48,099 nucleotides of DNA, from NCBI GenBank assembly GCA_018971565.1, contig JAGXAO010000004.1, forward strand, positions 1-48,099, written 5' to 3'. Source of the DNA: Rhodospirillales bacterium. GTDB taxonomy: Bacteria > Pseudomonadota > Alphaproteobacteria > Acetobacterales > Acetobacteraceae. A program made the translations under genes and the position numbers. Below are positions 26,670-29,392 of the stretch, one piece after another; position 1 is the first letter of the stretch; the number at the start of each line of letters is the position of its first letter. Under the pieces are notes generated by a model that worked only from the letters and a program-made list of their open reading frames with translations, had not been told where the DNA came from and did no database searches.

Positions 26670-26684
26670 GTTCTTGTTTTGTTC
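26670..26684 (+). promoter_or_regulatory. GTTC-N7-GTTC motif (alphaproteobacterial SOS-box-like)
   Basis: GTTC (26670-26673), seven bases and GTTC (26681-26684) match the direct-repeat LexA box known from alphaproteobacteria. It lies about 110 bp upstream of the S24 repressor start and next to the insertion site. A chance match is possible in this T-rich stretch. Confidence 0.35.
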
Positions 26685-26703
26685 GGGCTATAGGAATAGA
26701 AGC

Positions 26704-26726
26704 GCTATTATGCATTTGACGTACCA
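26704..26726 (+). repeat. left terminal inverted repeat of the IS1595-type element
   Basis: GCT-ATTATGCA-T-TTGACGTACCA. It matches the right end at 21 of 23 positions when reverse-complemented. Confidence 0.82.
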
Positions 26727-26979
26727 GCCATACCAGGGGGTAGGTCCGCAGGTGAAATTAGCATAGCAGCAACTATTCTCTTGACAGGATAGGTTGCTGT
26801 ATGAACCGATTCGGTGAGTCATATTTTCGACCGCGCCGCAACAAAAAGTTTCGGATAAACGGTTTTTAGATGTGAATCGGCTTGTTAGTAGTCTACAGTT
26901 CTTGCAAAACCCTGATCTTATGCATTATTTTGCATGATCTGAGATAAAAAAGTCTTGACAAAAATGGAAGAAGATAAAC

Positions 26980-27315
26980 ATGAGCGCAACAAGGGATATG
27001 TCGATTGATGATATGCGGGCGCATACCGCGACCATTGACGTGTCATACCGGTACGTTGATGGATACCATGTCTTCACTTCGAATGACGTGCGCGGCCTAT
27101 ATGTAGCAAGCATGGATGCGCGCAAAGCCTACAATGATGTCGCTGTTTTATTAAAAGAGCTTGTGGAACAAAAGGTTAAGGCATCTTGTACGGTGGAGTC
27201 GGTCCTTCCGTTTGAAGAATGGCTTGCAACCGAATCGGAGGCGGTACAGACTCCGAGTCCTGAGCCATCTTTAACCCTAGGGAATAAGCGCTATCTTGTC
27301 AGAGAGGCCGCTTAA
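26980..27315 (+). CDS. HicB-like small protein (passenger gene)
   Basis: This 111-aa protein has a GGAAGAAG ribosome-binding site before its ATG. The core ATIDVSYRYVDGYHVFTSNDVRGLYVASMDARKAYNDVAVLLKELVEQK follows the beta-beta-beta-alpha pattern and the D-G-x-x-V...D-x-x-GL...D...A spacing of HicB antitoxins (partial RNase H fold). A C-terminal extension (LPFEEWLATESEAV...GNKRYLVREAA) has no recognisable HTH or ribbon-helix-helix. It is followed 8 bp later by a HicA-like small gene. The similarity was judged by eye, so the antitoxin call is tentative; the gene itself looks real. Confidence 0.6.
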   Translation: MSATRDMSIDDMRAHTATIDVSYRYVDGYHVFTSNDVRGLYVASMDARKAYNDVAVLLKELVEQKVKASCTVESVLPFEEWLATESEAVQTPSPEPSLTLGNKRYLVREAA

Positions 27316-27323
27316 TAATGTGA

Positions 27324-27563
27324 ATGTCAGTCCGGCTTATAACGGTCCAAGAGTTTCGCGAAGAGCTTATAAGCCGAGACTGCAAGTTCATTAAGAATTC
27401 GTCTCTGCCTGGATATGAGATTTGGGAAGATCATTTAGGTGAGCCCTTCTCCTTTCCAGCTCCCGAGCAAGTTTGGGACGGAGAATATAGATATCCCGAT
27501 TGGATGCTCTGGGATCTAATCGAAACCATGGGATTATCCCCACATGGACCGAATTGCCACTGA
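27324..27563 (+). CDS. HicA-like small protein (passenger gene)
   Basis: This 79-aa protein opens VQEFREELISRDCKFIKNSSLPGYEIWEDHLGEPFSFPAPEQ and ends WMLWDLIETMGLSPHG. The alpha-beta-beta-beta-alpha order and the closing helix (L-x-x-I-x-x-x-GL) recall HicA mRNA interferases. The catalytic His of the usual GSH motif is not present; the matching position reads LPGYEIW. It may be a distant or inactive HicA-like fold, or something else. It is rich in Trp, Tyr and Pro near the C-terminus. It overlaps the next gene by 20 bp. Confidence 0.5.
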   Translation: MSVRLITVQEFREELISRDCKFIKNSSLPGYEIWEDHLGEPFSFPAPEQVWDGEYRYPDWMLWDLIETMGLSPHGPNCH

Positions 27564-27738
27564 GCCGGATACAATACCGAAAGAGAAAGCCGACCGCCTC
27601 CGCGATGAGGTAGTGCGGAAGATGGCGAATACGCCGCCGAAGGCGAAGAACGCGGGGATGATTCAACATTATTCCGATTGCGCCGTGAACAACGGCCCAG
27701 CTTATGAGGCTGGGCCGTGCACATGCGGTGGGTTATAG
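27544..27738 (+). CDS. small protein with DCAV-GPCxCGG motif (passenger gene)
   Basis: This 64-aa protein has a charged helical N-terminal part (TIPKEKADRLRDEVVRKMANTPPK) and a C-terminal HYSDCAVNNGPAYEAGPCTCGG. The three Cys, one His and Gly-Pro spacing look like a small metal-binding knuckle. I have seen similar tails in short phage and plasmid hypotheticals. The ATG lies inside the end of the HicA-like gene. It converges on the WYL-like gene with a 6-bp overlap. No function is assigned. Confidence 0.55.
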   Translation: MDRIATEPDTIPKEKADRLRDEVVRKMANTPPKAKNAGMIQHYSDCAVNNGPAYEAGPCTCGGL

Positions 27739-28029
27739 CTGAGCGATAATTCCGCGTTTCATGGCGGAGTCCCCGCGCCTGTAACCAGGGCGCGGACCAG
27801 GAAAAATGGTTCCTGTAAACGCACTCCCGATAAGGCGGTCTACGCGAAGTAGTTTCCAGTCTGTTGGTTCGCCGGATGCACTTACACCAGATGATTGAAA
27901 GGCGCGGAGCAAAATCTGTCCGTCCGCTCCAATCCCAAGCGCATGAGGTTCAATTACTCTTTTTCCTGGGGGGTAATCGATCTCTAAAACGAGCCGTTTA
28001 TTAATGGCATCTACTAACATGTCAGTCAT
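27733..28029 (-). CDS. orphan WYL-like domain protein, 98 aa (passenger gene)
   Basis: The protein has the pattern of a lone WYL domain: INKRLVLEIDYPPGKRVIEPHALGIGADGQILLRAFQSSG, then DWKLLRVDRLIGSAFTGTIF and PRPGYRRGDSAM. WYL domains sense ligands or nucleic acids and control phage-defence and DNA-damage operons, normally attached to an HTH; none is present here. An AGGAG ribosome-binding site lies 6 nt before the ATG. The gene is preceded by a 24-bp perfect palindrome. It could be a ligand-binding cofactor for another regulator. Confidence 0.6.
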   Translation of the reverse strand: MTDMLVDAINKRLVLEIDYPPGKRVIEPHALGIGADGQILLRAFQSSGVSASGEPTDWKLLRVDRLIGSAFTGTIFPGPRPGYRRGDSAMKRGIIAQL

Positions 28030-28050
28030 TGCTAACTCCTAAAAACCTAA

Positions 28051-28124
28051 GAGTCGCCTTGACTTTTCTCACTCAGTGTTGGAGTATTCCAACACTGCTT
28101 GAAGGTAGAATCCGCTGGCGACTC
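28051..28124. promoter_or_regulatory. nested palindromes upstream of the WYL-like gene
   Basis: A perfect hairpin CAGTGTTGGA / TCCAACACTG (28074-28083 and 28088-28097, 4-nt centre) sits inside an outer 8-bp inverted repeat GAGTCGCC / GGCGACTC (28051-28058 and 28117-28124). It is about 45 bp upstream of the WYL-like start, a good position for an operator or a leader structure. Confidence 0.6.
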
Positions 28125-28139
28125 CTATCGTTTGCGGAT

Positions 28140-28171
28140 GTGATAACTGGGGCGGGAACCCCGGTTATCAC
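28140..28171. repeat. 13-bp stem hairpin in the passenger region
   Basis: GTGATAACTGGGG (28140-28152) pairs with CCCCGGTTATCAC (28159-28171) around a 6-nt loop, with a single T/G position that can wobble-pair on the + strand RNA. No T-run follows, so it is not an obvious terminator. Confidence 0.65.
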
Positions 28172-28255
28172 GCAGTCGTTATCATTATGTCCCACCCTTC
28201 CGATTCGCACCAAGAAAAAGACTCTGCATCAATGGGTTATAGGTTTAATCCACGA

Positions 28256-28369
28256 TCAGCAATCTTTAGTTGAATCCCAAAACGGCAACCACAACTGCCC
28301 CTCAGGCTCATCCTCCGACTTTCCGCCAAGCGTCTCAGCCACCATTTTCCGGTAAGCCTTGAGGCTCAT
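28256..28369 (-). CDS. possible 37-aa ORF downstream of the transposase
   Basis: MSLKAYRKMVAETLGGKSED is followed by EPEGQLWLPFWDSTKDC and a stop. It starts 10 bp past the transposase stop in another frame, with AAAAGGA immediately before the ATG. The frame is open further upstream (VHGLHKPKG), which could also mean a frameshifted extension of the transposase. Composition looks coding-like (amphipathic basic helix, acidic linker, aromatic tail). No family is recognised. Confidence 0.35.
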   Translation of the reverse strand: MSLKAYRKMVAETLGGKSEDEPEGQLWLPFWDSTKDC

Positions 28370-28379
28370 TCCTTTTGGC

Positions 28380-29318
28380 TTATGCAGCCCGTGAACCAAC
28401 TTGTTGATATGTCAACCGCTTGCCTTCCGTGGCTTTAATCAGCTTCTCGGTACGGGCATTATCATCGCAACCCAGCTTATCCCGGTTATTGTACCGGAAC
28501 TCAAATTCTGACAGGTAGCGGTGCAAATGCTGCTCGCCACAATGCTGGTAGGTGCCTTTCATGCCGCGCTTGAACACGCCGAATAGGCCCTCGACGGTGT
28601 TGGTGTGAGAGATGCCGCGAACGTACTCACCAGCCGTGTGCTTCACGACGCTGTGATTGGCAACGAAAGCAGAAGCCTCCCAATACAACGCGCTATCATC
28701 CGTGTAGAGCTTCGTTTCCGGCTTCACGTGGTCGCGGATAATATCCAGAACGGTCTTCTTGTCGGCCCGCTCAACGTGAAACATCTTGGTTTTGCCTTTG
28801 CGCTCAACCAGCACAACAACGGAGCGCTTGGATGAATGAGAGGCTTTGCCTTTCTTCGTACGCTTCACGATCTCGTTCTTAGGGCCGAAATACGTCTCGT
28901 CCATTTCTACACCTTCACCACCCCCGCCAATCGGTGCCGGGGCAACATCGGTCATTGCCTCGCGGATGCGGTGAGCCATAAACCAAGCGGTGCGATAGGA
29001 GCCAAAGCCCAGCATGCGGAAAAGCTGATGCGCGCTGATACCCTTCTTGCTGGCGCAAATCAGGTGGGTGGCCAAAAGCCACTTGTGCATGGGGATTTTT
29101 GAACGCTCGTAAACGGTGCCAACCGTCGCGGTGAAAGGCTTCCGGCAATCACGGCACTTATACACGCCCGCGCGGGTGCTTTTGCCCTGCATCTCAACCG
29201 AATTGTCAACCGTGCCGCAATGCGGGCAACTCACACCATGCGGCCAGCGGATGCCCTCGAAATGCTTCCGGGCCGCTTCTTCGTCGTTATAGATCGGGTT
29301 GGTGAGATCGTATGCCAT
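28380..29318 (-). CDS. IS1595-family transposase (ISXO2-like DDE domain)
   Basis: This protein catalyses transposition of the surrounding element. From the ATG at 29318 (MAYDLTNPIYNDEEAARKHFEGIRWPHG) it is 312 aa. The N-terminal zinc ribbon is CPHCG-x-CRDCRKPF. The ISXO2-like catalytic core follows, with acidic residues in GVEMDETYFGPKNE and KLYTDDSALY and a final HTNTVEGLFGVFKRGMKGTYQH segment. This is the IS1595 arrangement. The frame is intact. A TTG two codons upstream is less likely. The promoter appears to lie in the right inverted repeat. Confidence 0.94.
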   Translation of the reverse strand: MAYDLTNPIYNDEEAARKHFEGIRWPHGVSCPHCGTVDNSVEMQGKSTRAGVYKCRDCRKPFTATVGTVYERSKIPMHKWLLATHLICASKKGISAHQLFRMLGFGSYRTAWFMAHRIREAMTDVAPAPIGGGGEGVEMDETYFGPKNEIVKRTKKGKASHSSKRSVVVLVERKGKTKMFHVERADKKTVLDIIRDHVKPETKLYTDDSALYWEASAFVANHSVVKHTAGEYVRGISHTNTVEGLFGVFKRGMKGTYQHCGEQHLHRYLSEFEFRYNNRDKLGCDDNARTEKLIKATEGKRLTYQQVGSRAA

Positions 29319-29324
29319 GGCCAA

Positions 29325-29353
29325 TTTGTACGGAAATCGACATGGTACGTCAA
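29325..29353 (-). promoter_or_regulatory. transposase promoter with -35 in the terminal repeat
   Basis: On the leftward strand TTGACG (29353-29348) lies inside the inverted repeat. A 17-bp spacer and TACAAA (29330-29325) follow. Six nucleotides then separate it from the ATG at 29318, which predicts a leaderless transcript. Confidence 0.6.
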
Positions 29354-29365
29354 GTGCATAATCGC
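29343..29365 (-). repeat. right terminal inverted repeat of the IS1595-type element
   Basis: Read on the complementary strand it is GCG-ATTATGCA-C-TTGACGTACCA. It matches the left end at 21 of 23 positions and is followed outward by the direct repeat GAATAGAAGC (29366-29375). Confidence 0.82.
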
Positions 29366-29392
29366 GAATAGAAGCCTATGCATAAACACAAC

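What the first reader, a model, noticed from the sequence alone, without database searches (positions are those of the whole stretch)
26694..29375. IS1595-type element with four or five passenger genes
The ends are 23-bp inverted repeats matching at 21 positions and flanked by a 10-bp direct repeat (GAATAGAAGC). Inside are a transposase and a cargo of HicB-like, HicA-like, Cys-motif and WYL-like genes plus a possible 37-aa ORF. Passenger genes are known in this transposon family, but this combination of a TA-like pair with an orphan WYL protein looks like a small defence or stability module. The 10-bp repeat differs from the usual 8-bp duplication.
Basis: partly seen in the sequence, partly recalled or inferred. 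Interest (0 to 1): 0.75.

Follow-up and report, generated by a model that had tools for sequence, protein, structure and literature searches.

The report
IS1595 transposon with swappable toxin-like cargo
A small bacterial jumping gene with an odd set of passenger genes belongs to a group whose complete copies each carry one tiny extra protein, swap their other cargo freely, and often insert into mirror-image sites that resemble their own ends.

Summary
A complete IS1595-family element occupies window 26703-29366 (2664 bp), with 20 of 22 terminal bases matching. The duplication is 8 bp (AATAGAAG). It reads as 10 bp because the next target bases match the element's terminal bases, as in 36 of 56 related elements. 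Nine of 13 same-genus genomes examined keep the uninterrupted site.

Passengers in IS1595 elements are already in print ('transporter IS', ISNha5). Three group-level results look new to me, provisionally:
(1) A ~50-aa basic protein, here the first part of ORF3, is in 56 of 56 complete elements. Its two types follow the transposase tree (2 changes; shuffled mean 10.2).
(2) Genes with a HEPN-like motif do not follow that tree (16 changes; shuffled mean 16.6).
(3) Of 37 elements beginning with C, 28 sit in GG-N8-CC (background 0.6%), consensus TAGG-N8-CCTA, resembling their abutted ends. The other 19 show no clear rule.

In this copy ORF1-ORF2 is a recurrent bicistron whose HicB/HicA identity is unproven. 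The WYL-like gene and Cys peptide form a pair also seen in two prophage-like loci. A defence or stability role is untested.

The parts
26690..26694 (.). left half of the palindromic target, ATAGG (right half CCTAT at 29375-29379)
   Evidence: intact in empty sites; consensus TAGG-N8-CCTA in 37 C-ended relatives
26695..26702 (.). left copy of the 8-bp target duplication AATAGAAG
26703..26725 (+). left terminal inverted repeat
26980..27315 (+). ORF1, 111 aa, weakly DUF1902/HicB-like; first gene of a recurrent pair
   Evidence: E 0.072; homologues in L084 and six class genomes read
27324..27563 (+). ORF2, 79 aa, partner of ORF1; predicted strand-helix-strands-helix order
   Evidence: AlphaFold2 model mean pLDDT 78.9
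27544..27738 (+). ORF3, 64 aa: residues 1-38 are the type-A small basic protein without its basic tail; the rest is a Cys peptide
   Evidence: type-A model E 1e-13
27658..27738 (+). Cys peptide MIQHYSDCAVNNGPAYEAGPCTCGGL, with its own possible start
   Evidence: 62% over 26 aa in L046, 56% over 27 aa in L047
27733..28029 (-). WYL-like gene, 98 aa, end to end with ORF3
   Evidence: PADLOC WYL E 1.5e-4, AbiEii E 1.6e-4; relatives on 14 plasmids and in L046, L047, L055
28074..28097 (.). near-perfect palindrome upstream of the WYL-like gene
   Evidence: no second site in the genome within 3 mismatches
28380..29324 (-). IS1595 transposase, 314 aa
29344..29366 (-). right terminal inverted repeat
29367..29374 (.). 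right copy of the 8-bp duplication

Best explanation
This is a 'transporter IS': an IS1595-family element whose transposase moves whatever lies between its ends. Shown: it sits in a palindromic site (ATAGG-AATAGAAG-CCTAT) and duplicated the central 8 bp. Shown: in the 56 complete relatives collected, the constant genes are the transposase and one ~50-aa basic protein, while other genes differ. Inferred: the small protein is a core factor that works with the transposase or couples it to the cargo. Inferred: the cargo slot tends to hold toxin-like or regulatory genes that favour keeping the element. In this copy the slot holds the ORF1-ORF2 pair plus a prophage-type WYL/Cys-peptide cassette; its capture is inferred to have cut off the basic tail of the small protein and fused the peptide to it. 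Inferred: target sites that resemble the abutted ends reflect the transposase docking on end-like half-sites.
For: Transposase domains. Exact ends and 8-bp duplication shared with relatives. Empty sites in 9 of 13 genomes examined. Small protein in 56 of 56 complete elements; leave-one-out 54 of 56 at E<0.01 and 56 of 56 at E<0.5; in 8 of 9 further loci with a transposase; in none of 16 loci with 28-37% transposase identity, apart from one E 0.3 match judged spurious. Small-protein type follows the transposase tree: 2 changes, shuffled mean 10.2, 0 of 500 shuffles as low. HEPN-motif label does not: 16 changes, shuffled mean 16.6. Target: GG-N8-CC in 28 of 37 C-ended elements against 466 of 74,266 background positions.
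Against: No experiment shows mobility or a function of the small protein. The window copy has a truncated, fused small protein and is single-copy, so it may be inactive. The 19 elements not beginning with C show no clear target rule (4 of 19 by a loose CC-N8-GG test). HicB/HicA identity has no profile support, and HEPN homology is only hinted at. One strong small-protein hit (G243, L190) has no detectable transposase nearby. Thirty of the 80 loci were dropped for lack of a detectable complete element.
Confidence: 0.7

Rival explanations
1. The small basic protein is not a transposition factor but a regulator or antitoxin for the neighbouring cargo, kept because the cargo needs it.
For: In 24 of 56 elements an in-frame ATG of the small gene overlaps, as CATG, the ATG of a divergent ORF of at least 60 aa; much of the cargo looks toxin-like.
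Against: Cargo changes freely while the small-protein type stays with the transposase. L067 (type A) and L107 (type B) share a two-gene cargo but differ in small protein.
Confidence: 0.35
2. The cargo is neutral hitchhiking DNA: genes trapped between the ends by chance, with no benefit to the element.
For: Passenger-carrying IS1595 elements are in print (PMC11891212, passage). HEPN-motif genes are spread over the tree as if at random.
Against: HEPN-motif genes occur in 20 of 56 elements; residue shuffles give a mean of 1.8 and a maximum of 6.
Confidence: 0.25
3. The cargo is a defence or stability module: ORF1-ORF2 act as an antitoxin-toxin pair and the WYL-like protein regulates it.
For: ORF1-ORF2 recur as neighbours. 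ORF1 weakly matches DUF1902. The predicted order of ORF2 is compatible with HicA as recalled. WYL-like relatives lie beside an AAA ATPase gene on plasmid pDrdII.
Against: No significant match to HicA or HicB. PADLOC found nothing for ORF1-ORF3. I found this gene set in no other locus.
Confidence: 0.25

Closest known systems
IS1595 family, transporter IS such as ISNha5 (Siguier et al. 2009, seen only as cited in passages of PMC11891212 and PMC8101967)
   Same: Transposase domains, zinc ribbon, 8-bp duplication, passenger genes.
   Different: A small basic protein in 56 of 56 collected elements and the TAGG-N8-CCTA target preference; I could not check whether the founding paper or ISfinder mentions them.
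Tn3-family transposons with toxin-antitoxin pairs (PMC7157771, abstract and outline seen)
   Same: Transposons whose passengers include toxin-like genes, with the idea that these belong to the transposition module.
   Different: Unrelated transposase family; no proven toxin-antitoxin pair here; the constant part here is a small basic protein.
HicAB toxin-antitoxin systems
   Same: Two small adjacent genes; ORF1 weakly DUF1902-like; predicted fold order of ORF2.
   Different: No significant profile match; putative antitoxin gene first; no GSHH motif seen in ORF2 (motif recalled).

Membership tests
IS1595 family | IS1595-type DDE transposase domain | tested here: met
   PF12762 E 2.2e-33; NF033547 196 bits against cut-off 75
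IS1595 family | N-terminal zinc ribbon (absent in the IS1016 group) | tested here: met
   PF12760 47.5 bits against cut-off 25.4
IS1595 family | 8-bp target duplication and terminal inverted repeats | tested here: met
   family feature as stated in passages of PMC8101967 and PMC12561309
IS1595 family, ISNha5 group | grouping with the ISfinder reference elements | not testable with these tools
   ISfinder is not available here
HicAB | HicB-type antitoxin domain (ORF1) | tested here: inconclusive
   DUF1902 E 0.072; profile comparison 0.4% probability
HicAB | HicA-type toxin domain (ORF2) | tested here: inconclusive
   no Pfam or NCBIfam match; profile comparison 0.1%; compatible predicted order; fold search not available
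WYL-domain proteins | WYL domain match | tested here: inconclusive
   PADLOC WYL E 1.5e-4 but AbiEii E 1.6e-4; no Pfam match for the window protein; relatives annotated as WYL
HEPN ribonucleases (cargo of relatives, not in the window) | HEPN domain with RNxxxH motif | tested here: inconclusive
   motif in 20 of 56 elements; Pfam HEPN_MAE_28990 in 2 of 14 members, best E 0.18; Csm6 E 0.36

The most novel reading that the evidence does not exclude
A widespread, mainly alphaproteobacterial IS1595 clade is a two-gene transposon (transposase plus a dedicated ~50-aa basic helper) with an interchangeable toxin-like cargo slot. It prefers palindromic targets that mimic its own abutted ends. Helper and transposase are co-inherited, while toxins and regulators come and go and stabilise the element.
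Probability: 0.4. Interest if true: 0.75.

Novelty: new variant of a known kind. Interest (0 to 1): 0.55.

Why it matters
IS1595 elements are usually treated as simple insertion sequences. A constant second protein, freely exchanged and often toxin-like cargo, and a strongly sequence-specific palindromic target would make this clade a compact, testable model of how an insertion sequence becomes a cargo transposon. Tn3 elements whose toxin-antitoxin pairs were proposed to be part of the transposition module are the nearest parallel (PMC7157771, abstract).

Tried and rejected
A 10-bp duplication was rejected on 56 elements. Plasmid searches with ORF1, ORF2 and ORF3 (E<=0.01) and phage searches with ORF1 and ORF2 (E<=1) found nothing; viral contigs gave no relative for ORF1 or ORF2. 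With ORF1 alone, only the own genome matched among 395 order genomes. The two-row profile matched 7 other genomes of 385 in the class; six were fetched, G522 was not. PDB searches with the ORF1 and WYL alignments gave only matches I take as chance, the best being influenza haemagglutinin at E 0.0074. Viral contigs gave one WYL locus, L216, not analysed. A 47-aa ORF beside the transposase (28256-28399) had no convincing relative. Reading the palindrome 28074-28097 as a terminator was dropped because I saw no T-run.

Rows dropped: of the 80 loci, 50 gave an exact 8-bp repeat with at least 16 of 22 matching ends around the transposase (which also required TTG in the left end) and 30 did not. L066 was dropped as a duplicate of L053. 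One search also returned L015, which the script did not include. Of the 11 hits, four weak ones (G018, G190, G160, G240; E 0.0023-0.0096) were not looked at further; none shares a contig with a transposase listed.
Full report
The element. The window holds one complete IS1595-family element at 26703-29366. Its transposase (28380-29324, minus) has the zinc ribbon and the IS1595 DDE domain. Among pairs in the window that combine an exact 8-bp repeat with inverted ends, it scores 20 of 22 and the next 16 of 22. It is the only copy in its 2.16-Mb, 166-contig assembly; two more distant IS1595 transposases lie in the same genome.

The insertion. In same-genus genomes the upstream S24-peptidase regulator gene and the downstream 77-aa gene flank an uninterrupted site. 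A joined-flank query aligns through the junction in 9 of 13 other genomes examined (loci L159, L160, L161, L163, L164, L165, L166, L173, L177), with one copy of the duplicated stretch. The empty site is itself palindromic, for example ATAGG-AATAGAAA-CCTAT in L159, so the palindrome was there before the insertion.

Why the repeat looks 10 bp long. I collected 56 complete elements: the window, six, and 49 from the 80 loci. Their duplications are 81% A+T against 37% in flanks, and their sizes 1763-3794 bp, median 2414. The base before the left duplication equals the element's last base in 37 of 56, the base after the right one equals its first base in 45, and both match in 36. Thirty-seven elements begin with C. 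Of these, 28 sit in GG-N8-CC and 25 in AGG-N8-CCT; GG-N8-CC occurs at 466 of 74,266 positions in flanking DNA. The pooled flank consensus is TAGG-N8-CCTA. Typical ends of that class are CCTAAT...ATTAGG, so the target resembles two abutted ends with an 8-bp spacer. Circular intermediates are reported for another IS1595 element, ISApl4 (PMC12561309, passages). The 19 elements that do not begin with C show no clear equivalent (4 of 19 by a loose CC-N8-GG rule), which weakens a general rule.

A constant small protein. Each of the 56 elements encodes a protein of about 50 aa, rich in Lys and Pro, of type A (...RRDEVLRRMLxTPPKPxK..., 45) or type B (11). Leave-one-out models find 54 of 56 at E<0.01 and 56 of 56 at E<0.5. 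The elements were not chosen for it. In 253 kb of flanks the models find three convincing members, possibly of neighbouring elements. Eight of nine further loci with a transposase have one; in the ninth the contig ends 371 bases after the transposase. None of 16 IS1595 loci with 28-37% transposase identity has one, apart from an E 0.3 match that I judge spurious. A type-A profile hit 11 of 299 order genomes. Six hits have E<1e-3: five, the window included, lie within 1.2 kb of a transposase, and the sixth (G243) has none detectable in the 10 kb read. Of the five weaker hits one (G245) lies 1.6 kb from a transposase. On the transposase tree the type needs 2 changes against a shuffled mean of 10.2. 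Pfam (one type-A protein) and NCBIfam (one of each type) have no name for it.

Cargo. Other genes vary. ORFs of at least 100 aa with an R[ND]x[hydrophobic]xH motif occur in 20 of 56 elements; shuffled sequences give a mean of 1.8 and a maximum of 6; flanks have it in 18 of 721 ORFs against 20 of 161. On the tree this label needs 16 changes against a shuffled mean of 16.6, so it moves independently of the transposase. HEPN homology is only hinted at. Other cargo includes a sub-threshold PIN match in L055 (E 0.012), a DUF3892 gene in L058 and, named from recall, Cas2/VapD-like genes in L053, L077 and L091 and a methylase/ParB-like pair in L067 and L107. In 24 of 56 elements an in-frame ATG of the small gene overlaps, as CATG, the ATG of a divergent ORF of at least 60 aa; several ATGs were tried per element, so this count is generous.

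The window's own cargo. ORF1 and ORF2 recur in the same order beside the transposase of L084 (Rhodospirillales bacterium URHD0017), with a type-A small protein and a HEPN-motif gene; I read that locus by eye, and its transposase has an in-frame stop. Six class genomes with ORF1 homologues were read; five have a small ORF starting at or just before the ORF1 stop, and no IS1595 transposase was found in those six stretches. ORF2 similarity is weak: 32% over 59 aa with L084, E 0.10, and E 0.005 with L156. The AlphaFold2 model of ORF2 (mean pLDDT 78.9) has the order strand, helix, strands, helix; HicA is recalled as helix, three strands, helix. Profile comparison with HicB and HicA sequences gave no support. 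ORF3 is the small protein without its basic tail, fused to a Cys peptide. The peptide and a WYL-like gene stand end to end in L046 and L047, which I read as prophage-like from their genes. A WYL-like gene also occurs in the same-genus IS1595 element L055 (E 4.7e-4), on 14 plasmids and in five records of uncultured phages of 635-735 kb.

Judgement. The element is an IS1595 transporter IS with an unusual cargo; the group-level pattern is the interesting part. In eight paper searches and the passages read I saw passengers in IS1595 mentioned (PMC11891212), but neither the small protein nor the palindromic target. The founding paper was not seen, so novelty is provisional.

Noticed in passing
window 26670-26684: GTTC-N7-GTTC, the alphaproteobacterial LexA/SOS-box pattern (recalled), lies 10 bp left of the duplication and is largely kept in empty sites. 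The insertion separates it from the downstream 77-aa gene and puts ORF1-ORF3 behind it.
   Followed up: partly
window 28074-28097: Near-perfect palindrome upstream of the WYL-like gene, with no second site in the genome within 3 mismatches; operator-like.
   Followed up: partly
L205 2119-4684 (same genome, contig C160): A more distant IS1595 element with 20 of 20 matching ends and duplication AAAATTTA carries a 209-aa gene that looks PIN-like by eye and a 262-aa neighbour, like the pair in L055.
   Followed up: partly
L204 1736-3661 (same genome, contig C31): Another distant IS1595 element, 1926 bp, with small passenger ORFs.
   Followed up: no
L060 956-3891 (Deinococcus plasmid pDrdII): Stand-alone WYL-like gene directly before an AAA ATPase gene and a hypothetical gene.
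   Followed up: no
L046 5797-7314 and L047 4615-7039: Both loci with the WYL/Cys-peptide pair also have a HicA-HicB-like pair nearby, by eye.
   Followed up: partly
L190 5057-5242 (G243): Strong type-A small protein with no detectable IS1595 transposase in the 10 kb read.
   Followed up: partly
56 elements: Small-protein gene and divergent cargo gene often share overlapping start codons (CATG), in 24 of 56 elements by a generous count.
   Followed up: partly
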